The notes beneath the pieces were generated by a model. The model was not told the DNA's origin, did not search any database, and saw only the letters and a list, made by a program, of their open reading frames with translations. Below, in pieces: positions 35,362-51,159 of a stretch of 52,238 nucleotides of DNA. Both the position numbers and the translations under genes were made by a program. Positions within the stretch are counted from its first letter, which is position 1, and each line of letters opens with the position of its first letter. The stretch is from a virus. Location: the IMG/VR virus record IMGVR_UViG_3300048554_000415, positions 1-52,238 of that record. The stretch is one strand, 5' to 3'.

Positions 35362-36969
35362 TTGAATAGTTTAGCTGATATTGATTTTGAGAAGAATAGT
35401 AAAAATGAAATAGTTAAGAGTGTTGATAATACTAGACGTATGAAGACATTGCTTGATAAAACAGGTTGTGGATTCTGTTTGGCTAAGTGGACGCAAGTTA
35501 CAATGCACTTAGGCACTGGACTTACACATAGTTGTCACCATCCAATACCTCACAAGATAGATTTAGAAGAACTTAAAAACAATCCTAGTGCATTACACAA
35601 CACTTCTTATAAAAAGAAACAGCGTAAAGAGATGCTACAAGGAGGACGACCTAAGGAGTGTGATTACTGTTGGCGTATTGAAGACGGCAATGGCGAAGGA
35701 CTAAGTGATAGACATCATAAAAGTTTAAGTGATTTCAGTTTCAATAAGCATGACGAAATTGCACAAATGACAGGTGATGAAAATGTTTATCCGACATACT
35801 TAGAAGTAAGTTTTAGTAATGTATGTAACTTTAAATGTAGTTACTGTGGTCCAGACTTTAGTAGCAAATGGGTACAGGAAATAAACAAACATGGATATTA
35901 TGATTTGCCTGGACAAGGATATAATCATACTGAACATAAACATATTCCAAATAACGAAGACAACCCGTACACTGATGCATTTTGGTTATGGTTTCCGGAC
36001 GCAAGAGAACATTTACACACACTGAGAATTACTGGTGGCGAGCCTTTAATGAGCAAACATACTTTTAAATTGTTAGAAGATATTAGAGATAACCCCACGC
36101 CCGATTTGGAACTTAGTATCAATACAAATGGAAATGCTCCTGCTAAAAATTGGAAACGTTTTTTAGACCTTATAATAGATATTTGTCACAACAACAAAGT
36201 AAAAAAGTTTACACTGTTTACTAGTGCAGAAGCTTTTGGTGAACGTTCAGAGTACAGCAGATATGGTATGGACTTTGAATTATTCCAACAGCAAACACAA
36301 GAGTTTTTAGAAAAAACACACAATACTAGAGTTGTGTTTATGTGTGCTTTTAATATTTTTAGTATTACTAGTTTTAAAGAATTCTTAGAATGGGTATTGT
36401 ATCTAAAAAAAGCCTACAACTTTAATGGTCTAAGCGATTGGATGGAAGGCATTGGGCTTGATCCTGTAAACAACTTGCTGGCGACCGGAGTGCCCAACTA
36501 CGAATACTTCCCTATGCAAACTATAAAGGTTAGAAAAGAAAGAACCAAAGAACAAATATTTGCTAGGGTTGGAATAGATATACCATATGTACGTTATCCT
36601 GATTTTTTAGATGCAAACATTGCAACCAAAGATTTGATAGTAGATTATTTTATGCCAGCACTAAACTTTATGTTTCAGTATGCTGAAAGCAAAGAATGGT
36701 TTGACTGCTTGGGTTTTGAAGATTGGGAAGCACTAAAACTAAAAAGAATCTTTACTAACATTGCATTTCAAGTTGACAGAGATGATGATGAAGACGGATT
36801 ATCTAACAACGAACATGTGTCTAGCAGAAGAGCAAGATTTTATAAATTTGTACAAGAATACGATAAAAGAAGAGGTGTTGACTTTTTAAGTACATTCCCT
36901 GAAATGGCACATTTTTACAATGTATGCGAACAAGAATATGAGAGGTTAAATCAAAATGAGGAAAAGTAA
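35362..36969 (+). CDS. Radical-SAM protein with N-terminal auxiliary cysteine region (A)
   Basis: A 535-residue protein with a TTG start 2 bp after the previous stop; AGAAG lies six bases before it, and the first internal ATG would remove conserved sequence. The N-terminal auxiliary region has CGFCLAKW, SCHHP (57-61) and CDYCWRIEDG (100-109). The radical-SAM cluster motif is CNFKCSYC (Cys155, Cys159, Cys162), followed by ITGGEPLMS, the usual SAM-contact motif. The architecture matches twitch/SPASM-like proteins seen in marine phages; substrate unknown. The C-terminus (about 380-535) is long and acidic. Its end overlaps the SGNH gene by 14 bp. Confidence 0.8.
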   Translation: MNSLADIDFEKNSKNEIVKSVDNTRRMKTLLDKTGCGFCLAKWTQVTMHLGTGLTHSCHHPIPHKIDLEELKNNPSALHNTSYKKKQRKEMLQGGRPKECDYCWRIEDGNGEGLSDRHHKSLSDFSFNKHDEIAQMTGDENVYPTYLEVSFSNVCNFKCSYCGPDFSSKWVQEINKHGYYDLPGQGYNHTEHKHIPNNEDNPYTDAFWLWFPDAREHLHTLRITGGEPLMSKHTFKLLEDIRDNPTPDLELSINTNGNAPAKNWKRFLDLIIDICHNNKVKKFTLFTSAEAFGERSEYSRYGMDFELFQQQTQEFLEKTHNTRVVFMCAFNIFSITSFKEFLEWVLYLKKAYNFNGLSDWMEGIGLDPVNNLLATGVPNYEYFPMQTIKVRKERTKEQIFARVGIDIPYVRYPDFLDANIATKDLIVDYFMPALNFMFQYAESKEWFDCLGFEDWEALKLKRIFTNIAFQVDRDDDEDGLSNNEHVSSRRARFYKFVQEYDKRRGVDFLSTFPEMAHFYNVCEQEYERLNQNEEK

Positions 36970-37645
36970 ACTATTTGTAGGAGGTTGTAGCTTTAGTGAC
37001 AGGTTTGGCAAAATCAACACCTGTTGGGGAGAAGAACTGGCAAAAATAAAAAATATGGATTATTGTCATGATGCAGTTAGAATATCCGGAAGCAATGACA
37101 GGATATGGCGTATACTGACTGATAAAATTATGTCAGGTGAAATTGAGCCCGAGGACAAGGTAATAGTTCAATATACTTTACCAAGTAGACGAGAGTTTGT
37201 AACTTGGAAAAATCCAAAGAGTGATGTTTACAAGGATAGATTTCCTGGTAGTGAAGAAGATTTGTATCTTGTAAAGTTTAAAGACAAGTCTCATGAATGG
37301 CACAAAGACATAGATGTAAGGGAATTTCTTAAATTATATGAGATCTTTTTCTCTATGGATGAATATGAGAAGCGTATCTTCAATCATCGACAGTATCAGT
37401 TTCAAATGCTGTGTGAGGTTCATAACATAAATGCATTTATTTTAAGCGTTAACACATATACATTTTGGGATAATTGCGATTTTACAACTTCTCAAAAGTT
37501 TAAAAATGAAAGAAGAATATTCAAAGATAATAAATTCGGATATGAAGAAGATGAAAGATACTCAGAAGATGACCCGCATCATTTGAGTGTAAAAGGGCAT
37601 ATTAAATTTGCAAACTTAATCAATAAATGGATTGGACCCAGATAG
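36956..37645 (+). CDS. SGNH/GDSL-like hydrolase (1)
   Basis: A 229-residue protein with GGCSFSDRFG (9-18) in place of the SGNH block I GDSxS, with Ser12 the likely nucleophile. The late motif DPHHLSVKGHIKFANLI supplies the Asp/His pair of block V. Such enzymes remove or transfer acyl groups on sugars. No signal peptide is seen. It overlaps radical-SAM A by 14 bp and radical-SAM B begins two bases after its stop, so it is sandwiched between two radical-SAM genes. Confidence 0.7.
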   Translation: MRKSKLFVGGCSFSDRFGKINTCWGEELAKIKNMDYCHDAVRISGSNDRIWRILTDKIMSGEIEPEDKVIVQYTLPSRREFVTWKNPKSDVYKDRFPGSEEDLYLVKFKDKSHEWHKDIDVREFLKLYEIFFSMDEYEKRIFNHRQYQFQMLCEVHNINAFILSVNTYTFWDNCDFTTSQKFKNERRIFKDNKFGYEEDERYSEDDPHHLSVKGHIKFANLINKWIGPR

Positions 37646-37646
37646 A

Positions 37647-38951
37647 ATGAAAATAGCTGACTTGCCAAACAACAATTTGTTTTGCCCGTTGCCTTGGCGA
37701 GGTGCTCACATCATGCCCAATGGAACATTCAGCTATTGTTGTGTACAAAATCAGTTTGACGAAGATCTGAAAGCCGCCGGTGATCTTAGTAAACAAACTA
37801 TATCACAAGCAAGGACCAATGCCTGGTCAAACGAACTTAGGAAAAATTTAATCGATGGCGTTCAACACAAAAGTTGCAGAAGTTGTTGGGACTTGGAAAA
37901 TCAAGGCATAGCAAGTTTGAGACAACACTATCATAATCAATGGTTCGAACATAACGGATATGCGGAAAATTTTGAATTTAATAGTGACGGTACATTAGAC
38001 AATCAGAACATAATATACTGGGACGTTAGGCAAACCAATTTGTGTAATATGAATTGTGTAATGTGTGGTCCAGACTACAGTAGTTTATGGAATAGAGATA
38101 TCTTAAAGAGTCAAGACAAACCATTGAAAAATGCAGGTGTGATTGATGCTGTGCAAGTTAGCAAAGACAACATACTTGATATAATCAAAAAAGATATAGA
38201 CAAAACTTATAAATTTTACTTTGCAGGAGGCGAGCCTTTAATTAGTCCTATGCATTGGGCAATACTAGAAGAGTTAGTAGAGAACAGACTTTTTAACGTA
38301 GAGCTTGCTTACAATACAAATCTACTCAAACTAGATTACAAAGGTAAAAATGTAATTGATTACTGGAAAAAGTTTAAGACAGTATATGTTGGATGTAGTG
38401 TTGATGCAGTAGGAGCAAGAGCAGAAACTGTGAGGTCAGGAACAGTATGGGAAACTGTTAACAAAAACTTTACCAGAATACATGACGAGCTGTATTACGC
38501 TAAAGCATTAAACATTTCAACTAGCAATTTAACTATAGCTGGTTTGGGAGATACAATAGAATGGGCTAAGAGTTTTGAATGGAAAAACGAAGAGCATACA
38601 CTATTAGCAAACAATATAGTATACTATCCTGAATGGCTAAGTGTAAACATATTGCCTAGATACCTCAAAGAAAGTATATGGAAAGATATTAAAGGTCCTC
38701 TTAACACACTAAAAAGCAAACGAAGCATAGAACAAATTGAAAGTGAACTATGGAAAGAAACAGACCCAGATTATTTTGAAAGAATGTGTATAAAATTTGC
38801 ACATCATATTGAATGGGTTACTTATATGAGAGGTACAGATCCTCAAACATTCTTAGAAAAAGGATGTCCAGAACTAGCAGAGTGGTGGAGTAAATTAAAT
38901 ATACAATATCGTCAAGAATTAGAAGATATCAATGCAGGGAAAGAAATATAA
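37647..38951 (+). CDS. Radical-SAM protein with N-terminal auxiliary cysteine region (B)
   Basis: A 434-residue protein; the ATG at 37647 is preferred over an in-frame TTG 15 bp upstream that lies inside the SGNH gene. The N-terminal auxiliary region reads FCPLPWRGAHIMPNG…YCC (12-32) and SCRSCWDLENQG (76-87). The radical-SAM motif is CNMNCVMC (Cys133, Cys137, Cys140), followed by FAGGEPLIS. The CxxxPW…pnG…CC arrangement resembles a SPASM-type second cluster moved to the front of the protein. Substrate unknown, but the gene sits directly before a GT10-like glycosyltransferase. Confidence 0.8.
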   Translation: MKIADLPNNNLFCPLPWRGAHIMPNGTFSYCCVQNQFDEDLKAAGDLSKQTISQARTNAWSNELRKNLIDGVQHKSCRSCWDLENQGIASLRQHYHNQWFEHNGYAENFEFNSDGTLDNQNIIYWDVRQTNLCNMNCVMCGPDYSSLWNRDILKSQDKPLKNAGVIDAVQVSKDNILDIIKKDIDKTYKFYFAGGEPLISPMHWAILEELVENRLFNVELAYNTNLLKLDYKGKNVIDYWKKFKTVYVGCSVDAVGARAETVRSGTVWETVNKNFTRIHDELYYAKALNISTSNLTIAGLGDTIEWAKSFEWKNEEHTLLANNIVYYPEWLSVNILPRYLKESIWKDIKGPLNTLKSKRSIEQIESELWKETDPDYFERMCIKFAHHIEWVTYMRGTDPQTFLEKGCPELAEWWSKLNIQYRQELEDINAGKEI

Positions 38952-40421
38952 ATGTTTGATAAAAAATTACCCTGTTATTTTGATCACGACAGAGATCCAG
39001 AAAACTATTATCCTTGGGTTAATGGTATATCTAAACAGATGCTTACCAAATTTAAGACCGAGGTGATTGGTTGTGCTGACGAGTCTGAAACTGATAATAT
39101 GCCAAGTTGGTATTCCTTAGGTAAGCCACAACCTTTTTTTATTGATGTTGTTACAAATTACAATGAAAATTTTAGAAGCTACGAAGAAGGAAGAGAACCT
39201 TTCATTTATCCTATTCACATTTGTCCTGCCCTAACACCATACGGAGATATACTAGATGAAAGATCTGTGGATTTTTGGACAAATTATATACACATAAATT
39301 CAGATGTACTATATCGTATTTGTAAAAGACAAAACGGTAAAATTTGTTTGTATAATAATTGGGAAGCATGGAGCGTTGGTTCTTACAAGCTAATAACAGA
39401 TATAATGATAGAAAAATATGGAGAAGAATTTGGATTAAGCAAGTGGCATTTTATTATAGCAAGTGGCAATGAAAACTTAAAAATAAATGGGGTGTATCCT
39501 CATACCACATCAACTCCTTTAATGAATCTACCTTGGCATCCTTCCGAAGTAGTAAACGAAGTTGTTGAAAAAATTAAAAATAAAGAACCACGAGAGAACA
39601 AATTCATTTGCCTCAATAGAGTTACTAAATCTCATCGACTAGCCGCTGTTGCTGAATTATGGGACGACAGAGAAGATGGTATAATAACAGCAATGTGTGT
39701 ACATTATGGTAATCCTGGAATTGATCATTTTGCTGAACTGACACGCAAAGAAGTAAGTCAACCTGCCTTCCCACAAATACATCAAATGCAAAAAATGCAC
39801 ACAGACTCCGATTGGAACAATTATGTCAAAGATCAAGTATTATCTGTAGGTAGAATGCGTTGGCACTATGATAGAGAATTACAAGAAAATTATCCCCAGT
39901 CTTTTGAAAAGTTTAAAGAGCACAAGCTGATTGATATGATGCCAATTTTAATGGCAGACGACATAAGTCCTATTGTTAATCCAGTGCCTGATCCTCTTAC
40001 ACAAAAGTTTTTTGATTCAAGTTTAAATATTGTTACAGAAACTTACGGATTAGAAAGCCAACAGAGTATACAACTAACAGATAAAATATGGAAGCCTATG
40101 TTACATTTTCAACCATTTGTTGTTATAGGATCCAAGGGTCATCTTTCAGCACTACATCAACGAGGATTTAAAACCTTTAATACATGGATCGATGAAACAT
40201 ATGATACAATACGAGATGATCAAAAAAGAATGACAGCGGCAATAACTAGTGCTAAAGAATTTTACAAAAGATCTAAAGAAGAGATTGCAGAAGACTTAGC
40301 TGATATGCTGGAAGTGTTATTGCACAACAATGAGCATTATCGACATTGTTATGAGAGTCATAGAATAAATGCTGTATGGCAAGTAGCACTTAATCTTAAT
40401 TACTGTAGAAAGGAATCATAA
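38952..40421 (+). CDS. GT10-like (fucosyltransferase-type) glycosyltransferase (1)
   Basis: A 489-residue protein. The middle has FICLNRVTKSHRLAAVAELW (about 218-237). The C-terminal donor-binding half has SLNIVTETYG (about 357-366), TDKIWKPMLHFQPFVVIGS and RGFKTFNTWIDETYD (about 397-411). This order (histidine/Glu strand, T-E/D-K-I, P-F-V-V-G, GFKTF-WIDE) is found in GT10-related transferases of phages and bacteria and is shared with the second copy at 47.7 kb. GT10 enzymes use GDP-fucose, which would fit the GDP-fucose-synthase-like gene nearby, but the donor is inferred. It abuts radical-SAM B without a gap. Confidence 0.65.
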   Translation: MFDKKLPCYFDHDRDPENYYPWVNGISKQMLTKFKTEVIGCADESETDNMPSWYSLGKPQPFFIDVVTNYNENFRSYEEGREPFIYPIHICPALTPYGDILDERSVDFWTNYIHINSDVLYRICKRQNGKICLYNNWEAWSVGSYKLITDIMIEKYGEEFGLSKWHFIIASGNENLKINGVYPHTTSTPLMNLPWHPSEVVNEVVEKIKNKEPRENKFICLNRVTKSHRLAAVAELWDDREDGIITAMCVHYGNPGIDHFAELTRKEVSQPAFPQIHQMQKMHTDSDWNNYVKDQVLSVGRMRWHYDRELQENYPQSFEKFKEHKLIDMMPILMADDISPIVNPVPDPLTQKFFDSSLNIVTETYGLESQQSIQLTDKIWKPMLHFQPFVVIGSKGHLSALHQRGFKTFNTWIDETYDTIRDDQKRMTAAITSAKEFYKRSKEEIAEDLADMLEVLLHNNEHYRHCYESHRINAVWQVALNLNYCRKES

Positions 40422-41542
40422 TGAAAATAGGATGGATAGGATTAGGCAAATGCGGATTGCCTATCGCAGAACGTATAGCACAAACATGTGATGTAATTGC
40501 ACACGATAAATTACCAAAGGAAACGCCTATATATACACACAATGTAGCAGACCTATTACAGACTGAGATTACATTTGTACTTGTAGAAACTCCTCATGTT
40601 AATAAAACACTAGACGGCAGTGTGCCCATAGATTTACAAACTGTAGAAGATTATGATTATACCGCATTAAACAGTGTATTACTAACATTGGCTAGCCATA
40701 GCTATGAAGGAGTAGTAGTAATTAGCAGTACTGTTAGTCCGGGAACTACAAAACAACTAGCAAAAAAGTACAATGATCTGAGAATTGTTTATATGCCTGT
40801 AATGATACATATAGGAACCGTAGCAGAAGACTTTGTTACTGCACCCATGTATTTTGTTGGAGGTAACAATGAAGCGGATAGAACACAAGTTGAAACCTGT
40901 ATAAAGCAATTTGTAAGTGGTAGTGTTAGACATGGAACGTACGAAGAAGTTGAAATGTACAAGATGTTTGGAAACATATATGCCAGCATAAAAATTGGAT
41001 TTGCAAATACTATAAGTGAAATGATCGAGTATGGAAACTTCAATGCTAGTAGTTGGAATGTCATGGACGCACTACTAGCTGAAAAACAAAACTTTAATAC
41101 TACAAACTATTTTCGTCCAGGCAGTGGTAACGGCGGACCGTGCCATCCAAGAGACGGTGTAGTTTTAACATGGCTTACAGATAAACTTAAAATGGAAAGT
41201 AAACTGTTAACTAATATCACACAGGTTAGACAGGATCAAGCACTGGCGCTTGCTAAACATCTTGTAAGTTATGACTTGCCTATTATAATATTAGGTAAAA
41301 GTTTTAAACAAGGAGTAGATTTAACAGTAGGAAGCTACAGCGTACTAGTAGGCGAATATTGTATAATGCTAGGTGCAAAAATAATGTATGATGATGTATT
41401 ACATCAACCTGCGGTTGTACTATTGGCTCACCCTAATAGAAAATTACTAGAAAAATATGAACCAGCTGAAGACAGTGTAATTGTTGATTTATGGAATCTT
41501 GGAATACCCAACGCTAAAGTTTGGGGTAATAATGCAACTTGA
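40421..41542 (+). CDS. Nucleotide-sugar 6-dehydrogenase (UDP-glucose/GDP-mannose dehydrogenase family)
   Basis: A 373-residue protein with an N-terminal Rossmann motif GWIGLGKCGLPIAERI (4-19), SSTVSPGTTK, and the catalytic block GSGNGGPCHPRD with nucleophile Cys241. FKQGVDLTVGSYSV corresponds to the FKxxTxDxRxS C-terminal sugar-binding motif. The enzyme would oxidise the C6 alcohol of a nucleotide sugar to the acid with two NAD. It is somewhat shorter than typical members (about 390-440), with a shorter C-terminal domain. It overlaps the previous gene by one base and radical-SAM C by 11 bp. Confidence 0.85.
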   Translation: MKIGWIGLGKCGLPIAERIAQTCDVIAHDKLPKETPIYTHNVADLLQTEITFVLVETPHVNKTLDGSVPIDLQTVEDYDYTALNSVLLTLASHSYEGVVVISSTVSPGTTKQLAKKYNDLRIVYMPVMIHIGTVAEDFVTAPMYFVGGNNEADRTQVETCIKQFVSGSVRHGTYEEVEMYKMFGNIYASIKIGFANTISEMIEYGNFNASSWNVMDALLAEKQNFNTTNYFRPGSGNGGPCHPRDGVVLTWLTDKLKMESKLLTNITQVRQDQALALAKHLVSYDLPIIILGKSFKQGVDLTVGSYSVLVGEYCIMLGAKIMYDDVLHQPAVVLLAHPNRKLLEKYEPAEDSVIVDLWNLGIPNAKVWGNNAT

Positions 41543-42638
41543 TCGCTGGTGGAACAAAAAAACTGCCACTACAAAAAATCTCAAAGGCAAATACTGTCCA
41601 AAACTATTTGAGTGGTTTGAGGTAGATCTTGTAGGCAATGTAAGACTTTGCTGTTCAACTTGGCTACCACAACCGATTGGAAACCTACTAGATAACACAC
41701 TTGAAGAGATATGGAACAGTGATAGAGCTATAGAATTACGCAATCAAGTTTTTACCGGAGATTGGAAATATTGCGACCATGAGCTGTGTCCTGTTATAAA
41801 CTCTGATGCATTACCTGATATCAATGACGAACATCATACCTCACCTTATGTTAAAGAACTTCCAAAACAGATAAATTTTTGTAATGATCAGAGCTGTAAT
41901 CTGATGTGTCCTAGCTGTCGCAATGAAAAAATTTTGCTTACCAGTGGACCTCAATATGAAAAAAGTAAACTCATCAATGATAGAATCTACGAAGGATTAT
42001 TCAGTAGACCAACAGATCAAAAAGTTGAAATTTTTGTAACTGGTGCAGGAGATCCTTTTGCTAGTAAAATTTTTAGAGAGATGTTGCAAAATATTGATGG
42101 AAGCATATTTCCTGGACTTGAAGTTAATTTACAAACCAATGGCACAATGATGACACCCAAGACGTGGCAGAGTCTACACAAGATACATGATAATATAAAT
42201 TTCTGCAGAATAAGTTTAGATGCAGGCTGTAAAGATACCTATGAAAACAAAGTAAGACTAAATGGTAATTGGAACTTACTGTTAGAAAATTGTAAATATT
42301 TAGACAGTCAAGTACCTCATAGTAAACAGCTAAAAGTAATGTTTGATTTTGTTGTACAGTATGACAACTACAAAGAAATGAAGGATTATGTGACACTATG
42401 TTTAAACACATTCAAAAACATTTATAAAATACACATATCACTGATCAGTGATTGGGGCACTTGGTCCTCGGAAATATATAAACAAAAATGTATATGGTCA
42501 GACAATCACCCTGAGTATCAACAATTTCTATCAGAACTAGATGATCCTATTTTTGATCACCCATTGGTTGATATGACAAATGTAACTTCAATTAGGAATT
42601 CAATATACAATAGCAGGAGTATTTTAAGTGAAGTATAA
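41532..42638 (+). CDS. Radical-SAM protein with N-terminal auxiliary cysteine region (C), atypical GGEP motif
   Basis: A 368-residue protein; the ATG at 41532 (MQLDRWWNKK) is chosen because the upstream extension lies wholly within the dehydrogenase gene. The auxiliary region reads YCPKLFEWFEVDLVGNVRLC (21-40) plus Cys41, then YCDHELCP (80-87). The radical-SAM motif is CNLMCPSC (Cys122, Cys126, Cys129). The usual GGEP motif is replaced by TGAGDPF, a notable change. It is the shortest of the four related proteins in the window and the most typical of SPASM-like peptides or sugar modifiers. It overlaps the SGNH gene that follows by 11 bp. Confidence 0.8.
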   Translation: MQLDRWWNKKTATTKNLKGKYCPKLFEWFEVDLVGNVRLCCSTWLPQPIGNLLDNTLEEIWNSDRAIELRNQVFTGDWKYCDHELCPVINSDALPDINDEHHTSPYVKELPKQINFCNDQSCNLMCPSCRNEKILLTSGPQYEKSKLINDRIYEGLFSRPTDQKVEIFVTGAGDPFASKIFREMLQNIDGSIFPGLEVNLQTNGTMMTPKTWQSLHKIHDNINFCRISLDAGCKDTYENKVRLNGNWNLLLENCKYLDSQVPHSKQLKVMFDFVVQYDNYKEMKDYVTLCLNTFKNIYKIHISLISDWGTWSSEIYKQKCIWSDNHPEYQQFLSELDDPIFDHPLVDMTNVTSIRNSIYNSRSILSEV

Positions 42639-43407: not shown

Positions 43408-44241
43408 TTGTTGACCACTGATACAGTAATCTTAGGAGCAGGAGCATTTAGTCATGCACACATTAGATGTTTGCTTGAGTTAGGAGTAACTGAATGTACA
43501 ATAGCAAAGCAGTCCGAATGGACTGGTGAACAAAAACACAAATTTGCAGAAGACTATCCACTTATGGCATTTACATTTGATAATAGTCCAAATGCTAAAG
43601 ATAAAAATGTGCATATAGTTACACCCAGTAATACACATGCTGAATTATTAAATCGTTACAATACTTGGGCCGCTAAAATTTTTGTAGAAAAACCCAGTGT
43701 GCTTTATAATAAACCCAGAGACTTTGACTATGCAAATCTAGTTACCAACACAATATATCAAAACGACTGGTTAGCACAAGTACAAAATCATAGGACTTGC
43801 AAGGACAAACCTAGTATAGTAAATTTTACATACCATGTCAAGAACAGAGATGATATAGATCACATTACTGAAATATGGAGTCATGTTATAAACTTTATAA
43901 GCCAGTGGATAGAACCAGATTGCAATATTTTTATACACAGCCAAAGTTATAAAAAGAGAACTAGAAGTATTAATTGTATTATCAACAATGAACTTACATT
44001 AAACATTAACAGTACAAACGGACTTGTGGAAAAAAGCGAGTGGCATTTGCGTGTAGATGATGAACAATTTGAAAGCAAACAGTTCGGTGGTAATTTACTT
44101 ATAAATACATTAAATACTATGTTAACTGGAACTGTGCCTTTGACTGATTGGTACACATCTAGTTGGTTATTACATAAATTCAGATTGTTGTCAAGTAAAG
44201 AAATATTTGATAGTCAATTTTTATTAAACTATAGGAAATAA
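43408..44241 (+). CDS. Gfo/Idh/MocA-like oxidoreductase
   Basis: A 277-residue protein with an N-terminal dinucleotide fold GAGAFSHAHIRCLLEL (10-25), VHIVTPSNTHAELL (about 68-81) and KIFVEKPSVL (about 90-99). These match the Gly-rich loop, TPS/TP-x-x-xH and EKP motifs of NAD(P)-dependent Gfo/Idh/MocA sugar oxidoreductases. The family is usually about 340-400 residues, so the C-terminal sheet domain is reduced. The start is TTG immediately after the previous stop, with AGGA nine bases upstream. Likely acts on a (nucleotide) sugar made by neighbouring genes. Confidence 0.7.
   Translation: MLTTDTVILGAGAFSHAHIRCLLELGVTECTIAKQSEWTGEQKHKFAEDYPLMAFTFDNSPNAKDKNVHIVTPSNTHAELLNRYNTWAAKIFVEKPSVLYNKPRDFDYANLVTNTIYQNDWLAQVQNHRTCKDKPSIVNFTYHVKNRDDIDHITEIWSHVINFISQWIEPDCNIFIHSQSYKKRTRSINCIINNELTLNINSTNGLVEKSEWHLRVDDEQFESKQFGGNLLINTLNTMLTGTVPLTDWYTSSWLLHKFRLLSSKEIFDSQFLLNYRK
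44100..44107 (+). promoter_or_regulatory. TATAAATA octamer inside the oxidoreductase gene
   Basis: A perfect late-promoter core, 136 bp before the dioxygenase gene at 44243. It lies in coding sequence that naturally reads Leu-Ile-Asn-Thr, so it may be chance in AT-rich DNA. If used, it would give an internal late start for the dioxygenase and epimerase genes. Confidence 0.3.
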
Positions 44242-44242
44242 A

Positions 44243-44950
44243 ATGGATATTGATGTAGATTATATTAAAGAAAATGGCTATGCAGTCATGCCAAATTTTT
44301 TAACATCAGACGAAGTAAAACAACTACAAGACTTGTGTGATAGCAGTCCAGTAGCAATGGGAGAAACTTGGGCTGGAGAAGATGGAAAAACAGAATACTT
44401 GCCAGACTTGGATCCAGATTCATATATGCATTGGTGGAGTTATAACATGAGTGAACATGCTATTGTACAGCAAGTCAAAGACAAAATAAAGCCAATGGCT
44501 GACAAATGTTTTAATGGAGAGTTTGAACAACTGGGCGGCGACTTTAAAGTTACCAATCCTGATAGTGGATACATGTATTGTCATTTTGATACACCTTACA
44601 GACATGATCGTTGGGCAAATGATTTTGGAGAAGATATTAAAGGTATGCAGTTTGGTATAGCACTTGATAAATTTGATGATGTAAGCGGAGGTACTAGAAT
44701 ACTTCCTGGCAGTCATAAAAAAGTTTATCATAAAACAGATATGGATGCACGAAAGCATGACCAAGAATTTCTACGTGACGGTGTTACAATGGAACTTGAA
44801 CCAGGCGGATTGTTTTGTTATCACAGTAGAACTATGCACAGTACTATGCCAAACAACAGCGGTAAACCACGCAGGTTAATGTTGTTGTTACACTTGTGGA
44901 ATGATCCTACATTTAGACAAGAGCTACAACAAGAAGAATCCAAATGCTAG
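44243..44950 (+). CDS. PhyH-type Fe(II)/2-oxoglutarate dioxygenase (1)
   Basis: A 235-residue protein of the phytanoyl-CoA dioxygenase (PhyH) family. The iron triad is visible as HFD (His114, Asp116) and His199 in MHSTMPNNSGKPRR, with Arg209/Arg210 placed to hold 2-oxoglutarate. GGTRILPGSHKK (149-160) is the typical bridge between them. Family members hydroxylate or epimerise lipids, amino acids, antibiotics and sugars, so the substrate is open. Here it sits among sugar genes. It overlaps the second copy by 7 bp. Confidence 0.85.
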   Translation: MDIDVDYIKENGYAVMPNFLTSDEVKQLQDLCDSSPVAMGETWAGEDGKTEYLPDLDPDSYMHWWSYNMSEHAIVQQVKDKIKPMADKCFNGEFEQLGGDFKVTNPDSGYMYCHFDTPYRHDRWANDFGEDIKGMQFGIALDKFDDVSGGTRILPGSHKKVYHKTDMDARKHDQEFLRDGVTMELEPGGLFCYHSRTMHSTMPNNSGKPRRLMLLLHLWNDPTFRQELQQEESKC

Positions 44951-45594
44951 ACTTGTTAGAAAAATTTAATCGTGACGGATATGTTATAGTTGAAAATTTA
45001 TTAGACAGTAACGAAGCACTTAGGCTACGAGATATATGTGATGCTATACCACAAGGCGTAAATGTTGATAGTGAAGAATGGTGGACAGACTATAGTCATA
45101 GTGTAGCACAAGCTGATAAAATTTTTTTAGATACAATTACACTAAAACAAAGAGATATTGCAAATATATTATTTCAAGGTAGTGAAAATTATTCCAGTGG
45201 TGTTGCCGGATTTAAAGTTACAAAACCAGGAGGAGGAAAAGTTGCACCGCATTTTGATACTCCTTATGATAGACCTGAATATTATAACGATTTTAGCTTT
45301 ACTAAATGCATACAAGGGTGTATACTAGTAGATAAGTTCGATCATACAAATGGTGGTACTATGATATGGCCCGGTAGTCAGACTATAGAGTTTGACTATG
45401 AAAAAGTTTTAGCAGGAGACTACAACGAACAGTTTTTACAAAATGGTGTTCCTGTTATAGCTGACGAAGGATCAGCTATGTTTTTCCATGCTAGAGTTAT
45501 GCACAGTACAATGCCAAATAGATCGCAACAACGTAGAAGATTAATGTTAAATTTACATCTATCTACGGACAAGGAGTTTCGCAATGGATATTAG
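44944..45594 (+). CDS. PhyH-type Fe(II)/2-oxoglutarate dioxygenase (2)
   Basis: A 216-residue paralogue of the preceding gene. The iron ligands are HFD (His103, Asp105) and His187 in MHSTMPNRSQQRRR, with the GGTMIWPGSQ bridge. The two proteins align along their full length but have different middle loops (WWTDYSHSVAQADKIF versus MHWWSYNMSEHAIVQ), as expected for a duplication followed by change in substrate. It overlaps the cupin gene by 11 bp. Confidence 0.85.
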   Translation: MLDLLEKFNRDGYVIVENLLDSNEALRLRDICDAIPQGVNVDSEEWWTDYSHSVAQADKIFLDTITLKQRDIANILFQGSENYSSGVAGFKVTKPGGGKVAPHFDTPYDRPEYYNDFSFTKCIQGCILVDKFDHTNGGTMIWPGSQTIEFDYEKVLAGDYNEQFLQNGVPVIADEGSAMFFHARVMHSTMPNRSQQRRRLMLNLHLSTDKEFRNGY

Positions 45595-45970
45595 AAGAAT
45601 AAAAAAATTAGATCCAGAAATTAATCCCATTACATTCAAGGATGGTAGAGGTATAATTCAAACTTATTATCCTGAACAGTATAATATAGTTGAATGGAAC
45701 TATATTGTAACACTCAAGGGAGCAGTAAGAGGACATCATCTACACAAAGAGTTTGATGAATATATAATGTTTGTAGAAGGAGAGGGTGTGTACACAGAAC
45801 TTACAGAAGGTAAAGAACTTGTAACACCGGTAAGTGCAGGAGATTGTATATACTTGCCTATGCTGATGCCCCATACATTTTATCCAACTGCTGACTGCAA
45901 AATGATTGCAATGATTACCAAACGTTGGAATGATTGTGATGAACCAATAACAAAGGTAGAAATAAAATGA
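45584..45970 (+). CDS. Cupin of the WxcM/FdtA type (sugar isomerase/epimerase-like)
   Basis: A 128-residue single-domain cupin. The conserved block FKDGRGIIQTYYP (18-30), IVTLKGAVRGHHLHKEFDEY (41-60) and DCIYLPMLMPHTFYP match the double-stranded beta-helix of dTDP-4-keto-sugar isomerases and epimerases (FdtA/WxcM, RmlC-like). It would change the stereochemistry or keto position of a nucleotide-linked sugar. Its end overlaps the SDR gene by 4 bp, so it is translated with the following two SDR enzymes. Confidence 0.7.
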   Translation: MDIRRIKKLDPEINPITFKDGRGIIQTYYPEQYNIVEWNYIVTLKGAVRGHHLHKEFDEYIMFVEGEGVYTELTEGKELVTPVSAGDCIYLPMLMPHTFYPTADCKMIAMITKRWNDCDEPITKVEIK

Positions 45971-46866
45971 AACGAATAGCAATAACAGGAGGAGCCGGCT
46001 ATATAGGCTGTAGACTCAGTGAATATTTTTTACAACAAGGATATACAGTTGATTGCATCGACTGGCTCAAATGGGGTGTTGAACCTATACTCAATATTGT
46101 TGACCATAAAGACTTTAACTTACACAATGTTGATATTTGCACACCAGAAGTAGAGCCTATACTTGCTAAAGCTGACATAGTAATACACCTAGCTGGCATT
46201 ATTGGATTTCCAGCTTGCAATGCAGAACCAGACCTAGCATATAGAATTAATGTTGAAGGCACTAAAAGAGTTATCGAAGCAAGTGCAGGCAAACGTTTTG
46301 TGTATGCAAGTACCGGCAGTGTGTATGGAGCACTAGATAGTGTATGTACCGAAGAGGCAGAAGCCAATCCTATTAGCACATATAGTGTCTATAAACTAGC
46401 AGGTGAGCGTATGCTAGATGACCAAGCAGTAATTATAAGACCAGCCACAGCGTTTGGTGTTAGTAATAGATTACGCAATGATTTGTTAATAAACGACTTT
46501 GTACGCAAAGCCTGTATTGGTGAACACATGGTTTTGTTTGAAGGACATTTCAAAAGAACATTTATCAGTATAAATGATCTAGTACGCTCGTTTGCTTGGA
46601 CCGTTGATAGATATGAGGAAATGCGTGGACAAATTTGGAATGTAGGTGATGAAACACTCAATCATACCAAACTAGAAATATGCGAAACTATACAAAAGCA
46701 TATACCCACTTGGACTTATGAAAACAATACTACGCTTGAACATGACCAAGATGGTAGAAACTATTTTGTTGATTATACAAAAATTAGGAACTTAGGATTT
46801 ACAGCAACTGAGTCACTAGATCAAGGAATTGAAAATTTAATTAAAGTATACAAGGCAGTGATATGA
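45967..46866 (+). CDS. NAD-dependent sugar epimerase/dehydratase (extended SDR)
   Basis: A 299-residue extended short-chain dehydrogenase. The cofactor motif TGGAGYIG (7-14), VIHLAGIIG, RFVYASTGSVYG and catalytic YSVYK (Tyr139, Lys143) are all in place. FKRTFISINDLVRSF (about 196-210) fits the substrate-binding part of nucleotide-sugar epimerases. Specificity (4-epimerase, 4,6-dehydratase or other) cannot be read. It overlaps the fucose-synthase-like gene by 4 bp. Confidence 0.85.
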   Translation: MKRIAITGGAGYIGCRLSEYFLQQGYTVDCIDWLKWGVEPILNIVDHKDFNLHNVDICTPEVEPILAKADIVIHLAGIIGFPACNAEPDLAYRINVEGTKRVIEASAGKRFVYASTGSVYGALDSVCTEEAEANPISTYSVYKLAGERMLDDQAVIIRPATAFGVSNRLRNDLLINDFVRKACIGEHMVLFEGHFKRTFISINDLVRSFAWTVDRYEEMRGQIWNVGDETLNHTKLEICETIQKHIPTWTYENNTTLEHDQDGRNYFVDYTKIRNLGFTATESLDQGIENLIKVYKAVI

Positions 46867-47741
46867 CAACAGTACTAACCGGTGGTAGCGGATTTTTACT
46901 TAGTAATTTACAACAAGAGTATACAGCTGATTATATATCACCTCGCAGTAGTGAAGTTAATTGGATAACAGGCGAAGGTGTAAACACTTTACCTGATCAG
47001 CCAGATGTATTTGTACACAGTGCGGCTATATACGGAGGCTTGGTATTCAATCAACAGTATCCTGAACGTATACTACTAGATAATATGCGTATGTCAATAA
47101 ATGTCTTTGATTACATATTGACAGCAAAGCCAAAAAAAGTTATTATTATAGGAAGTGCATGTAGCTACCCCGGCGGCGCAACAGGCAAATTAACTGAAGA
47201 TATGATCGGCAGTGGTCGAATGGAGCGTACCGTTGAGCTTTATGCAATGAACAAGTTGTGGCAATTAGCGGCTAGTGAGCGTTTACTATCTGATTGGACA
47301 CATCTTGTACTTGCCAATATGTACGGACCAAATGATCACTTAGATTTAGAAAAAGCACATGTAGTTGGAGCATTGATGAAAAAGATATCTAATGCAAAGC
47401 GTGACGGCACTGATGTACAATTACTAGGCACCGGAGAAGCAATGCGTAGTTTAGTGTTTGTAAAAGATGTGTGTGCAGTTGTCAACCAATTCGCTACACA
47501 AGATTTACCCAACGGAGCATACAACGTTGGACACGATTCGGGTATTAGTATTAAACAGATGGCAGAAACTATTGCAGATGTAGTTGGATTTACTGGCAAC
47601 ATACTATGGGGAGATCCTAAAGATAATGGAGCTATGGTTAAAATATTAGACTATACAAAATTAGACGCAGTATATTGTGATAGACCTAAAACAAGTCTAT
47701 ACGACGGACTCGATGCATCTAAAGAATATTACAATGGATGA
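46863..47741 (+). CDS. GDP-L-fucose-synthase-like SDR
   Basis: A 292-residue extended SDR with TGGSGFL (6-12), IIGSACSYP (95-103; Ser98, Cys100), YAMNK (Tyr127, Lys131) and AHVVGALMKK (His166). The Cys/His pair is a hallmark of GDP-4-keto-6-deoxy-mannose epimerase-reductase, which makes GDP-L-fucose. FNQQYPERILLDNMRMSINV also matches the family's P-x-x-F-x-x-x-N region. It would need GDP-mannose 4,6-dehydratase, which is not in this window unless the upstream SDR does that job. It overlaps the GT10-like gene by 8 bp. Confidence 0.8.
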   Translation: MTTVLTGGSGFLLSNLQQEYTADYISPRSSEVNWITGEGVNTLPDQPDVFVHSAAIYGGLVFNQQYPERILLDNMRMSINVFDYILTAKPKKVIIIGSACSYPGGATGKLTEDMIGSGRMERTVELYAMNKLWQLAASERLLSDWTHLVLANMYGPNDHLDLEKAHVVGALMKKISNAKRDGTDVQLLGTGEAMRSLVFVKDVCAVVNQFATQDLPNGAYNVGHDSGISIKQMAETIADVVGFTGNILWGDPKDNGAMVKILDYTKLDAVYCDRPKTSLYDGLDASKEYYNG

Positions 47742-49113
47742 AGTAAAAGTACCAGTCTGGATGTTAGACTTTAATGGCACCAGTGCTATTACCAATGACT
47801 GGAAAATGTGGTACAACGGCTATAGCCGACCCAAATTAAAACAATACTTCGCCGACTTCATGCCTCAAATGTTAGAGAACCAAACTCTCAGAGAAATGTG
47901 CATTCCACTAATACCCAACGTTAATGCTAGAGATTATCTTAATTGTTTGACTTTGAATCAGAAGCATGAAAACTTTTTTTATCCAATTGCTATAAGTTGG
48001 TGGATTAACTATCCGGGTTTAATTGAAGCATCAATGGAAATACCTGACTTTATAATAGATAAAATAAAAGATAAAAAAGCAAAAATACTTTTATACAACG
48101 ATAGAGAACAATGGGGATGTACTTGGTGGAGAGAAAATGTATTAGAACCAATCTGTGACAAATATCCTGCTATCCAGTTTGAAGACTTTGCTATTGCTTG
48201 TAACAATCCAGATTTGCGAGGAGTAGAAAGTATTAAACTTATGACAAACCAAGCAATGCCACAAAGTTCAAGTTACTTTTGGTCACATGAACTTATGAGA
48301 GATAGTATTCGAAACAAAATACTAAATCCCACAGCCAATGAACACAACGGCAAAGGAAGTAGACCTTGGAAGTTTGTTTGCTTGCTTCGCAGACCTAGTC
48401 CTGTCAGATGGGCTATAAGTGCAGAGCTAATGCAATATAAATTCGATGATGATGCTTTGATGAGTATGAGTTGTGACATTGAACTTATTCCTCAGAATGG
48501 AATAAAGTTTGAAAAACTAGAAGATGGTTATTATGAATACATGCGAGAAAATTTTTGGGTAGGGAGATGTACAATTCCTGGCTATGATGAAGCACATCAC
48601 AAGTATACTAAAACCAGCGAACTGTTATACAAGTGGGATAAAGAATATCCATTTTGGATTCAAAATGATACTAATCCTTTAACCAATCCTCTTATTGAAG
48701 ATCAGATATGGAAGTTTACAGACAGCTATCTACACATTGTAAGTGAAACATATTTTGTCTCAGAAAAAGAAGGAGTGTGTTTAAGTGAAAAGGTCTTTAA
48801 ACCAATCTGGTATATGCAACCTTTTGTTGTATTTGGGTCAGCACATACACTCAGTGCTTTACGAGAGTTGGGATATAAAACATTTGACAAATGGATAGAC
48901 GAAAGTTACGATACAATCGACGATCAAGTTGAAAGATTCTATTCAGCTATCAGCAGTATTAAAAAGTTTGTGGATCAAGATGCGGAAACATTAGATGAAA
49001 TAATGAAAGAAATATTACCTGTATTAGAACACAATGTACAAGTATTAGATCACAACAATGAACATCTATATAAAGACTTTAAACAAAGCCTTGTCGATTC
49101 ATTGGGAAAGTAA
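47734..49113 (+). CDS. GT10-like (fucosyltransferase-type) glycosyltransferase (2)
   Basis: A 459-residue protein from the ATG at 47734 (MDEVKVPVWM); the frame extends 57 bp upstream to a GTG, but that lies in the fucose-synthase gene. The C-terminal half shares HIVSETYF, LSEKVFKPIWYMQPFVVFGS and LGYKTFDKWIDESYDTI (about 333-392) with the first GT10-like protein, and FVCLLRRPSPVRWAI corresponds to its FICLNRV block. It lies directly after GDP-fucose synthase and directly before radical-SAM D. This suggests fucosylation or related transfer, by context. Confidence 0.65.
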   Translation: MDEVKVPVWMLDFNGTSAITNDWKMWYNGYSRPKLKQYFADFMPQMLENQTLREMCIPLIPNVNARDYLNCLTLNQKHENFFYPIAISWWINYPGLIEASMEIPDFIIDKIKDKKAKILLYNDREQWGCTWWRENVLEPICDKYPAIQFEDFAIACNNPDLRGVESIKLMTNQAMPQSSSYFWSHELMRDSIRNKILNPTANEHNGKGSRPWKFVCLLRRPSPVRWAISAELMQYKFDDDALMSMSCDIELIPQNGIKFEKLEDGYYEYMRENFWVGRCTIPGYDEAHHKYTKTSELLYKWDKEYPFWIQNDTNPLTNPLIEDQIWKFTDSYLHIVSETYFVSEKEGVCLSEKVFKPIWYMQPFVVFGSAHTLSALRELGYKTFDKWIDESYDTIDDQVERFYSAISSIKKFVDQDAETLDEIMKEILPVLEHNVQVLDHNNEHLYKDFKQSLVDSLGK

Positions 49114-50445
49114 ATGGACAAACATACGCTTTTAAATCAATCAAAAGTGTTCTGCATGGCTCCTTGGACTCACATGCATGTATGGCCCAACGGCACAGCT
49201 AAACCATGTTGTGTTACAAATAGTGAACAAAAATACGGTAACACACACGACAATACAATTCAAGAACTATGGAATAGCGAAAGTGCATGTAAGTTAAGAA
49301 GTGACATGCTGGCAGGTAAACCTAATGAATATTGTAATCATTGTTATGCAGTTGAAAAAACAAACCAAGGTAGTTTACGCACAAGTTTAAACAAAAGATT
49401 TGGTGAAGATCATTTTGATAAAGTAAAAATTACCAAAAGTGATGGCAGTCATGACGAACCAAATTTTACATACATGGATATACGTTTTAGTAATATATGT
49501 AATCTAAAATGTAGAACTTGTAATCCAACTTGGAGTAGCAGTTGGTATGACGAATATAAAAAAGTAAATGGCAGTGTACCAGTACAGATAACGCCAAAAA
49601 AATATACACAAATAACAGACAAAGATAAACTACTGGAAGAAATACTAGGGTTAATAGATACTACTGAAGGAGTTAACTGGGCAGGCGGTGAACCGTTTAT
49701 TACAGAAGAACACTGGACTGTTATGGATCACTGGGTCAGTACTGGTAAGGCAAAAGATATAGAAGTTGATTACACCACTAACTTTAGTATGCTCAAGTAT
49801 AAAAAACGAGATTTATTTGAATTGTGGAGTCATTTCAAACAAGTGAGAATACATGCCAGTCTAGACGGAAGTTGGCAAAGAGGAGAATACCTACGCAAAG
49901 GATTAGATTGGCAACAAGTAATTGACAATCGAAAGCGTATGTTAGAACAAGCTCCACATATACAATTTGAGATCATTCCCACAGTGAGCATACTAAATGC
50001 AATGCATTTACCAGACTTTCACAAAGAATGGCTAGAGAATGGCTGGATATACAATGCAGATCATTTTAGATTTAATTTTTTATTTTCACCAAGTGAATTT
50101 TGTTTGAGAAATGCTACCAATCGATACAAAAAGAAAGTGTCTAATAGATGGCGTGAACACAAACAGTGGCTTATTGACAACCAACACAGCAAACCAGATG
50201 ATAGTATAATTCAATGGATTGACGGTTTAGAAAAATTTATGTATGTTAAAGCAGAAAAAGTCAACATGGATAAGCTGTTAACAACTTACGATAGAGTTAG
50301 AGATGAACGCTGGTGGCAGGTATTTCCAGAACTAATGGATAGAGATACATTGGTCAATACAGTTGTTAAGAAAATAAAAAGAAAATATATACGCTATCGT
50401 GTGAATAAACGAATACAGCGTAAGCAAAAATTTATAATGGATTAA
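49114..50445 (+). CDS. Radical-SAM protein with N-terminal auxiliary cysteine region (D)
   Basis: A 443-residue protein. The auxiliary region reads FCMAPWTHMHVWPNGTAKPC (13-32) with Cys33, then EYCNHCYAVEKTNQG (72-86). The radical-SAM motif is CNLKCRTC (Cys129, Cys133, Cys136), followed by WAGGEPFIT. It is closest to radical-SAM B in overall layout. The C-terminus is Lys/Arg-rich (IKRKYIRYRVNKRIQRKQK), which could bind nucleic acid or a membrane. It starts directly after the GT10-like gene and converges, with a 14-bp overlap, on an SGNH gene of the opposite strand. Confidence 0.82.
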   Translation: MDKHTLLNQSKVFCMAPWTHMHVWPNGTAKPCCVTNSEQKYGNTHDNTIQELWNSESACKLRSDMLAGKPNEYCNHCYAVEKTNQGSLRTSLNKRFGEDHFDKVKITKSDGSHDEPNFTYMDIRFSNICNLKCRTCNPTWSSSWYDEYKKVNGSVPVQITPKKYTQITDKDKLLEEILGLIDTTEGVNWAGGEPFITEEHWTVMDHWVSTGKAKDIEVDYTTNFSMLKYKKRDLFELWSHFKQVRIHASLDGSWQRGEYLRKGLDWQQVIDNRKRMLEQAPHIQFEIIPTVSILNAMHLPDFHKEWLENGWIYNADHFRFNFLFSPSEFCLRNATNRYKKKVSNRWREHKQWLIDNQHSKPDDSIIQWIDGLEKFMYVKAEKVNMDKLLTTYDRVRDERWWQVFPELMDRDTLVNTVVKKIKRKYIRYRVNKRIQRKQKFIMD

Positions 50446-51121
50446 ACTTGGCTATTTCTTTGACCAAGTGGTCACACAATATTTCATGTGATTCGGGTCC
50501 AAAATGATAATCTGGTTCGTGTTGCATACCGAGATCGTGGCAATGCACAAAAGGAATAATATTAATTCGATCATTTACCCAATCATAATGACCCTTAACA
50601 CTGGGCTGAAAAATATCTACGAACCAACTAAAAAATACACATTTCACATCGAAGTTTTCACATATCTGATGCATAGTTATAATGTCATGAAACACTTTAT
50701 AATCGTTGTATACACTAGTAATCATATGAGGTAATACTGCCGCATCTGCGTTCACTTGCTCGCCGATATACTCACTTAGCCATATGTCGTTGTTGTTTGA
50801 TTTCCAAGTATATGTACCGATATCATCAATAACTCTATGATTACTCAACTCACCGTCTTGCCAACGGGCACTTCTATTAGGAGTACTCCATCCAGTTACA
50901 GCTCTAGCAGGATCTGTTAATTGTATTACAGCAAGTTCCACATCTGGATTGTTTCTAAGTATATAATGAAGTTTTTCTATATACACACCGTTGCCACTGC
51001 CTACGTTAAAGCTGGTGATACCCGGCATGTCGAATCGTCTTGGTAAAATTTGTGCCCATGTGTCTCCCCAAATTTCGTTTGATGCATTGCTGTCTCCTAT
51101 AGTCACCAGTTTACCAGTCAT
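50432..51121 (-). CDS. SGNH/GDSL-like hydrolase (3), opposite strand
   Basis: A 229-residue protein with GDSNASNEIWGDTWAQIL (9-26), the SGNH block I with Asp10 and Ser11; the fourth position is Asn rather than the usual Ser/Leu. NVGSGNGVYIEKLHYI (39-54) supplies the Gly/Asn blocks, and PDYHFGPESHEILCDHL the Asp/His end block. It is the only minus-strand gene of the right arm. A perfect late promoter octamer and GAAGGGA ribosome site lie upstream, so it is expressed late. Its end overlaps the end of radical-SAM D by 14 bp. Confidence 0.75.
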   Translation of the reverse strand: MTGKLVTIGDSNASNEIWGDTWAQILPRRFDMPGITSFNVGSGNGVYIEKLHYILRNNPDVELAVIQLTDPARAVTGWSTPNRSARWQDGELSNHRVIDDIGTYTWKSNNNDIWLSEYIGEQVNADAAVLPHMITSVYNDYKVFHDIITMHQICENFDVKCVFFSWFVDIFQPSVKGHYDWVNDRINIIPFVHCHDLGMQHEPDYHFGPESHEILCDHLVKEIAKFNPL

Positions 51122-51153: not shown

Positions 51154-51159
51154 TTTATA
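51152..51159 (-). promoter_or_regulatory. T4-type late promoter for the minus-strand SGNH gene
   Basis: On the minus strand the octamer TATAAATA is perfect (plus TATTTATA). It predicts a start near 51146, about 25 bases before the SGNH ATG, with GAAGGGA (51128-51134) between. Confidence 0.75.

What the first reader, a model, noticed from the sequence alone, without database searches (positions are those of the whole stretch)
35362..51121. Recurring radical-SAM / SGNH / GT10-like modules in a phage sugar island
Four related radical-SAM proteins, three SGNH hydrolases and two GT10-like transferases recur as neighbours: A-SGNH1, B-GT1, C-SGNH2, GT2-D-SGNH3. Between them lie nucleotide-sugar and oxygenase genes. 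Most junctions overlap by a few bases. Such a repeated enzyme set is unlikely to be random cargo. It may be a system for making, acylating or deacylating, and attaching unusual sugars to virion fibres, host envelope or phage DNA.
Basis: partly seen in the sequence, partly recalled or inferred. Interest (0 to 1): 0.85.

Follow-up and report, generated by a model that had tools for sequence, protein, structure and literature searches.

The report
Radical-SAM sugar-editing island in marine phages
A stretch of a large ocean phage genome, next to its tail-fibre genes, packs four radical-SAM enzymes, three SGNH esterases and several sugar transferases; the same toolkit recurs in hundreds of uncultured marine phages, with up to 15 radical-SAM genes in one virus, and most likely builds and chemically edits unusual sugar chains inside the infected cell.

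Summary
Four intact N-terminal-twitch radical-SAM proteins (rA-rD), three SGNH-fold proteins of one family (S1-S3) and two homologous GT-B transferases distantly related to GT10 lie next to each other as described. Between them lie nucleotide-sugar genes, and nearly every junction overlaps. The toolkit recurs: baits other than rSAM (gB, GT1/2) still recover rSAM in 39/66 and 28/43 non-redundant viral loci. Single phages carry up to 15 family members, mostly in one island. The strict trio is not the unit: rSAM-SGNH adjacency is at or below shuffled order in rA-type viral loci, although GT-SGNH, GT-rSAM and rSAM-rSAM pairs are enriched. The four rSAMs sit in four separate clades, not recent duplicates. 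Almost nothing in these islands has a membrane segment (26/1637 viral versus 193/729 bacterial ORFs), which argues against a self-contained envelope-polysaccharide pathway. Best reading: a cytoplasmic cassette that makes and radically edits glycans, most plausibly on virion proteins; host glycans remain possible; DNA is unsupported. Sugar islands and rSAM cassettes in such phages were reported before; this composition and scale were not found described.

The parts
28318..29241 (+). virion fibre-type protein immediately upstream of the island
   Evidence: PHROG tail fiber / virion structural hits; fibre-type genes (this family or the neighbouring gene at 29242) lie just upstream of the GT8-like pair in 65 of 80 gB-bait loci
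30845..31744 (+). GT8-like (GT-A) glycosyltransferase, first of a conserved pair
   Evidence: family profile hits only glycogenins (GT8) in the PDB below E 0.01 (best 1.3e-3); same profile family as the next gene
31731..32648 (+). GT8-like (GT-A) glycosyltransferase, second of the pair
32605..33615 (+). gA, conserved protein of unknown fold, almost always next to gB
   Evidence: gA-gB adjacent 63 times against 15.4 expected in gB-bait loci
33615..34592 (+). gB, strongly conserved; putative GT-A glycosyltransferase (DxD motif, inferred from sequence only)
   Evidence: 113 relatives in the first loci; no Pfam or credible PDB hit; D64/D66 conserved in 90% or more
34592..35359 (+). cytidylyltransferase-cupin fusion (nucleotide-sugar formation and isomerisation)
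   Evidence: Pfam CTP_transf_like plus MannoseP_isomer
35362..36969 (+). rA, N-twitch radical-SAM protein of the gB-linked clade
   Evidence: NF033640 291 bits; gB-rSAM adjacency 59 against 22.5
36956..37645 (+). S1, SGNH/DUF6071-like protein
37632..38951 (+). rB, N-twitch radical-SAM protein
   Evidence: NF033640 291 bits; SPASM and Radical_SAM
38952..40421 (+). GT1, GT-B transferase distantly related to GT10
40421..41542 (+). UDP-glucose/GDP-mannose dehydrogenase family enzyme
   Evidence: Pfam E 2e-14
41532..42638 (+). rC, divergent N-twitch radical-SAM protein
   Evidence: SPASM and Radical_SAM; NF033640 56 bits, below cut-off
42628..43407 (+). S2, SGNH protein
   Evidence: profile family; GCSF block I
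43408..44241 (+). GFO/IDH/MocA-like oxidoreductase
   Evidence: weak Pfam hit, E 6e-4, below cut-off
44243..44950 (+). PhyH-family 2OG-Fe(II) oxygenase 1
   Evidence: Pfam E 2e-18
44944..45594 (+). PhyH-family 2OG-Fe(II) oxygenase 2
   Evidence: Pfam E 7e-19
45584..45970 (+). cupin, possible sugar isomerase
   Evidence: Pfam Cupin_2
45967..46866 (+). NAD-dependent sugar epimerase/dehydratase 1
   Evidence: Pfam E 1e-35
46863..47741 (+). NAD-dependent sugar epimerase/dehydratase 2
   Evidence: Pfam E 8e-26
47677..49113 (+). GT2, GT-B transferase homologous to GT1
49114..50445 (+). rD, N-twitch radical-SAM protein, best match to NF033640
   Evidence: 376 bits
50432..51121 (-). S3, SGNH protein (GDS block I), convergent with rD
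   Evidence: recovered by SGNH profiles seeded from other members; TATAAATA 38 nt upstream of the start
51159..51767 (+). ribulose-phosphate 3-epimerase family protein
   Evidence: Pfam E 4e-19
51752..52237 (+). nucleotidyltransferase-like protein, cut by the contig end
   Evidence: weak NTP_transf_3, E 1e-4, below cut-off

Best explanation
A phage-encoded glycan building and editing island. Nucleotide sugars are made and oxidised by the dehydrogenase, the epimerases, the cupins and the cytidylyltransferase. GT8-like, gB and GT-B transferases assemble a glycan. Radical-SAM enzymes make otherwise difficult C-H changes (epimerisation, dehydrogenation, deoxygenation or coupling) on individual sugar positions, PhyH oxygenases hydroxylate, and SGNH enzymes add or remove acyl groups. 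A conserved core (GT8L, GT8L, gA, gB and, in many loci, an rA-type rSAM) starts the structure, and exchangeable cassettes diversify it. The enzymes lack export signals and membrane segments, so the work happens in the cytoplasm. The island adjoins fibre genes, so the most plausible acceptor is the phage's own fibre or tail protein. Shown: gene content, recurrence, conserved core, separate rSAM clades, intact cluster ligands, lack of membrane segments. Inferred: chemistry, substrate, acceptor.
For: Sugar enzymes identified by Pfam. GT-B/GT10 relation and GT8 relation. SGNH fold. Co-occurrence from baits other than rSAM: with GT bait 28/43 loci hold rSAM, 28/43 SGNH, 23/43 UGD, and GT-SGNH adjacency is 39 against 16.2; with gB bait 39/66 hold rSAM. 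Conserved block GT8L-GT8L-gA-gB in 56/80 gB-bait loci, with fibre-type genes upstream in 65/80. Up to 15 NF033640 matches per virus record. B12-dependent rSAM and C-methyltransferase genes in related islands. Membrane segments in 26/1637 viral against 193/729 bacterial ORFs; N-terminal hydrophobic stretch in 0/277 window and viral SGNH proteins against 12/17 bacterial relatives. All 611 rSAM proteins keep CX3CX2C.
Against: No substrate is known for NF033640 proteins, and twitch/SPASM enzymes often act on peptides. No acceptor protein was identified; the 3769-aa structural protein has only one moderately Ser/Thr-rich stretch. Gene position next to fibres is a general feature of the host-recognition island and may not mean the product goes on fibres. 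Late expression is only weakly supported. Lack of membrane proteins could be met by host export machinery. Neighbours of cellular rSAM-SGNH clusters are mixed, not clearly glycan loci. Some related sugar cassettes lack rSAM.
Confidence: 0.5

Rival explanations
1. Host-surface remodelling: the island changes the host's LPS or capsule precursors in the cytoplasm, using host flippases, to block superinfection by other phages.
For: This is the published reading for pelagimyophage and jumbo-phage sugar clusters (PMC7029224; PMC7824862). The Vibrio phage K566 record has six family matches and a PagP lipid A acylation gene nearby.
Against: Almost no membrane proteins, flippases or exported acyl-modifying enzymes in the islands. 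Bacterial SGNH relatives mostly have N-terminal hydrophobic segments, viral ones do not. The core sits with fibre genes.
Confidence: 0.3
2. Protein-modifying array: twitch/SPASM radical-SAM enzymes install side-chain or backbone changes on fibre proteins or small peptides (RiPP-like), and the sugar genes are separate neighbours.
For: SPASM/twitch enzymes are often peptide maturases (background knowledge; the rSAM profile also hits SkfB). rA-type rSAM is tied to gA and gB beside fibres.
Against: Association with GT-B, UGD, epimerase and B12-rSAM genes; the profile also hits BtrN and cytosylglucuronate decarboxylase, which act on cyclitol and nucleoside-sugar substrates. Precursor peptides were not searched for systematically.
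Confidence: 0.13
3. Phage DNA hypermodification: the sugars are attached to phage DNA bases.
For: Glycosylated DNA is known in T-even phages (background); GTs and oxygenases are present.
Against: No DNA base-modifying enzyme was recognised among the genes annotated here; the island is placed with fibre genes, not replication genes; PhyH enzymes are not TET/JBP.
Confidence: 0.03
4. Loosely assembled cargo: the island is a hotspot where unrelated host-derived genes accumulate, with little joint function.
For: Mosaic identities of 49-90% between neighbouring genes of the window and L287, with genes missing and one SGNH inserted; rSAM-SGNH adjacency at or below chance in rA loci.
Against: Co-occurrence and specific adjacencies far above shuffled order, from independent baits; intact active-site cysteines throughout.
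Confidence: 0.04

Closest known systems
Host recognition cluster (hypervariable island) of pelagimyophages (PMC7029224)
   Different: That paper reports rSAM cassettes in passing; no SGNH family, GT10-like pair, gA-gB core or N-twitch assignment was found in it. This phage's gp6-like protein is nearest to those of jumbo phages.
T4-like environmental viral genome with 12 radical-SAM genes (PMC5332604)
   Same: Many radical-SAM genes in one marine T4-like genome; A-type Fe-S carrier also present in 6 of 12 records here
   Different: Interpreted there as Fe-S metabolism; no link to SGNH or glycosyltransferase genes was seen in the passages read.
Jumbo-phage 'capsular polysaccharide modification systems' (PMC7824862)
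   Same: NAD epimerases, cupin isomerases, nucleotidyltransferases, 2OG-Fe oxygenases and GTases in variable clusters
   Different: The terms radical SAM and SGNH do not occur in that paper's text.
NCBIfam NF033640 N-terminal twitch radical-SAM proteins
   Same: rA, rB, rD are members above cut-off; rC is a distant relative
   Different: The family model names no function.
CAZy GT10 (PF00852) fucosyltransferases
   Same: GT-B-like fold and the TEK...P...G nucleotide-sugar motif
   Different: No Pfam hit; the relation is seen only by profile-profile comparison (hhalign probability 27%).

Membership tests
NF033640 N_Twi_rSAM | score above curated cut-off (170 bits) | tested here: met
   rA 291.5, rB 291.3, rD 376.4 bits; rC 56.4 does not meet it
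NF033640 N_Twi_rSAM | CX3CX2C radical-SAM cluster motif plus N-terminal twitch cysteines | tested here: met
   all four window proteins
CAZy GT10 / PF00852 | Pfam gathering score | tested here: not met
   no PF00852 hit in the window or in the 39 aligned relatives
CAZy GT10 / PF00852 | GT-B fold and conserved TEK-P-G nucleotide-sugar motif | tested here: inconclusive
   Foldseek top hits are GT-B enzymes but the best E is about 0.01; hhalign score 35.6 against at most 17.9 in controls
SGNH hydrolase superfamily | block I G-x-S and block V D-x-x-H with SGNH fold | tested here: met
   block I in 232/276 and block V in 240/276 viral members; PDB profile and fold hits. S2 shows no block V in its last 45 residues as printed, so its catalytic state is less certain.
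SGNH hydrolase superfamily | catalytic hydrolase or acyltransferase activity | not testable with these tools
   needs biochemistry
Pelagimyophage-type host recognition cluster | variable island beside VrlC/tail-fibre genes with glycosyltransferases | tested here: met
   island follows a 3769-aa structural protein and fibre-type genes; recurrence of fibre-GT8L-gA-gB. That the 3769-aa protein is VrlC itself was not tested.
Pelagimyophage-type host recognition cluster | the virus is a pelagimyophage infecting SAR11 | tested here: inconclusive
   gp6 matches are best to jumbo phages of other hosts, all below 60% identity; host unknown
O-antigen/capsule pathway (Wzx/Wzy or ABC type) | integral-membrane flippase, polymerase or initiating transferase | tested here: not met
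   no ORF over 150 aa in the window reaches the TM threshold; 26/1637 in related viral loci. Host-encoded parts cannot be excluded.

The most novel reading that the evidence does not exclude
Abundant uncultured marine phages carry a dedicated, cytoplasmic radical-SAM editing line (up to 15 enzymes per virus) that turns a core glycan, started by the GT8L/gB transferases on a virion protein, into strain-specific non-standard sugars: a virus-encoded way of varying virion surface chemistry.
Probability: 0.25. Interest if true: 0.85.

Novelty: new variant of a known kind. Interest (0 to 1): 0.6.

Why it matters
The conserved gene order gives concrete partners (gA, gB, GT8-like, GT-B, SGNH) with which to find the substrate. 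If the products sit on virions, phages would have radical-enzyme glycan chemistry of their own, bearing on host range, competition between phages and new carbohydrate enzymology.

Tried and rejected
Recent tandem duplication of rSAMs: rejected, four separate clades. A strict rSAM-SGNH pair: not enriched in rA-bait viral loci. Fusions between component families as functional links: none found. Late-promoter test of expression time: TATAAATA is rare in the window (4 hits, 8.8 expected); one lies upstream of S3 and one upstream of the structural gene at 5605, but island genes elsewhere are mostly coupled and carry no promoter of their own, so only suggestive. S1 as viral bait found no relatives. 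Genome scan with the broad rSAM alignment failed for lack of conserved stretches, replaced by A4. PDB search with the GT alignments gave nothing meaningful and gB none. Ser/Thr-rich acceptor search in the large structural protein: no clear mucin-like domain. gB against GT8L profile: no relation seen. Several 'bacterial' loci (L052, L053, L055, L059, L070, L115, L116) have the phage gene order and were treated as viral in the membrane-segment counts.

Full report
WHAT IS THERE. The window is a whole IMG/VR record of 52,238 bases, probably a fragment. It carries T4-type genes (SbcC/SbcD-like subunits, late sigma factor, baseplate genes) and a 3769-aa virion structural protein followed by fibre-type genes. 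Its gp6-like baseplate protein is nearest to jumbo phages such as Phosso, Munch and Atu_ph07, all below 60% identity. gA, gB, rA, GT1, S2 and the first GT8-like protein have no match in 50,697 phage records, and rD finds only distant relatives, mainly in Vibrio phages. This is a lineage without close cultured relatives.

Each named gene class was tested. The four radical-SAM proteins match Pfam Radical_SAM, and rA, rB and rD match NCBIfam NF033640, radical-SAM proteins with an N-terminal twitch domain; rC is a distant relative. They keep CX3CX2C and four auxiliary cysteines, so each is predicted to hold two Fe-S clusters. S1-S3 are one profile family with DUF6071/GDSL proteins, with PDB profile and fold matches to SGNH esterases. 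GT1 and GT2 have no Pfam hit. Their predicted fold resembles GT-B enzymes (best E about 0.01, so weak alone). A profile comparison with genuine GT10 proteins gave E 7e-4 and score 35.6, against at most 17.9 for shuffled controls and 17.0 or less for the other island families. 'GT10-like' is therefore fair; 'GT10' is not established.

A LARGER ISLAND. The genes at 30845 and 31731 are GT8-like (the only credible PDB matches are glycogenins). Then come gA, gB and a cytidylyltransferase-cupin fusion. In loci fetched with gB as bait, GT8L-GT8L-gA-gB occurs in 56 of 80, fibre-type genes lie just upstream in 65 of 80, and rSAM follows gB within three genes in 42 of 80. That gB is a GT-A glycosyltransferase is inferred from its DxD motif and sequence pattern only.

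RECURRENCE. The rD bait gave 41 viral loci. Profile searches over the first 201 loci found 512 rSAM, about 160 SGNH, 98 GT10-like and 113 gB proteins. Against shuffled gene order in non-redundant loci: rA loci, gB-rSAM 59 against 22.5, rSAM-rSAM 41 against 22.2, GT-rSAM 25 against 11.3, rSAM-SGNH 10 against 16.9 (not enriched); rD loci, rSAM-rSAM 51 against 17.0, rSAM-SGNH 16 against 11.1; bacterial loci, rSAM-SGNH 20 against 11.0. With baits that are not rSAM: gB, 39 of 66 loci hold rSAM; GT, 28 of 43 hold rSAM and 28 of 43 SGNH, with GT-SGNH 39 against 16.2 and GT-UGD 17 against 5.5. These loci were chosen as best matches, so the rates describe relatives of this island, not all phages. Long virus records hold up to 15 NF033640 matches each, mostly in one stretch, including weaker partial matches; six of twelve records also hold an A-type Fe-S carrier.

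EVOLUTION. In a tree of 269 representative rSAMs the four window proteins fall in four separate clades, each nearest to a protein of another virus. The nearest locus, L287, has the same order but lacks GT1, rC, S2 and one PhyH and carries an extra SGNH; protein identities range from 49% (GT2) to 90% (cupin). This is cassette exchange around a conserved core.

WHERE IT WORKS. Only 26 of 1637 ORFs over 150 aa in viral island loci have a transmembrane-like segment, against 193 of 729 in bacterial loci. None of 277 window and viral SGNH proteins has a hydrophobic N terminus, against 12 of 17 bacterial relatives. A self-contained O-antigen or capsule pathway needs membrane flippases and transferases (background knowledge), so the phage either uses the host's or works on a cytoplasmic acceptor. 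With the fibre-gene location this favours virion proteins, without proving it. Late expression is suggested by a TATAAATA motif 38 nt upstream of S3 and by continuity with structural genes, but the motif test over other loci was not conclusive.

PRIOR WORK. Pelagimyophage host-recognition islands with GT8 enzymes and radical-SAM cassettes (PMC7029224), a T4-like genome with 12 radical-SAM genes (PMC5332604) and jumbo-phage sugar clusters (PMC7824862) are published. The SGNH and GT10-like partners, the gA-gB core, the N-twitch family assignment, the scale across hundreds of contigs and the lack of membrane proteins were not found described in the papers I could search (subscription journals are mostly not held). 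Novelty: a new variant of a known kind.

VERDICT. Observation confirmed, interpretation partly supported. Best reading, at 0.5: a cytoplasmic glycan building and radical-editing island, most plausibly for virion proteins.

Noticed in passing
34592-35359: Fusion of a cytidylyltransferase-like domain with a mannose-6-phosphate isomerase C-terminal cupin domain, probably a bifunctional nucleotide-sugar enzyme.
   Followed up: partly
109-537 (-): Small ORF that looks like a GIY-YIG-type protein (VYLITNLTNGKKYIGKK) near the window start; judged by eye only.
   Followed up: no
29242-30429: Fibre-region protein with GYGYG repeats; relatives sit beside the conserved island core in many phages.
   Followed up: partly
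L052, L053, L055, L059, L070, L115, L116: Contigs binned as Betaproteobacteria, Verrucomicrobia, Pelagibacter, Rhodobacteraceae or Rickettsiales MAGs have the phage gene order and are probably misbinned phage contigs.
   Followed up: partly
L063, L068, L072, L062, L066: Bacteroidetes genomes and MAGs carry their own clusters of several N-twitch radical-SAM genes with SGNH proteins that mostly have membrane or signal segments; function unknown.
   Followed up: partly
L046 (Vibrio phage K566): Sequenced Vibrio phage with several radical-SAM genes and a PagP lipid A acylation gene nearby; a possible system for experiments.
   Followed up: partly
L010:7331-9505 and relatives: A 720-aa B12-binding radical-SAM protein sits inside the radical-SAM arrays of one viral clade.
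   Followed up: partly
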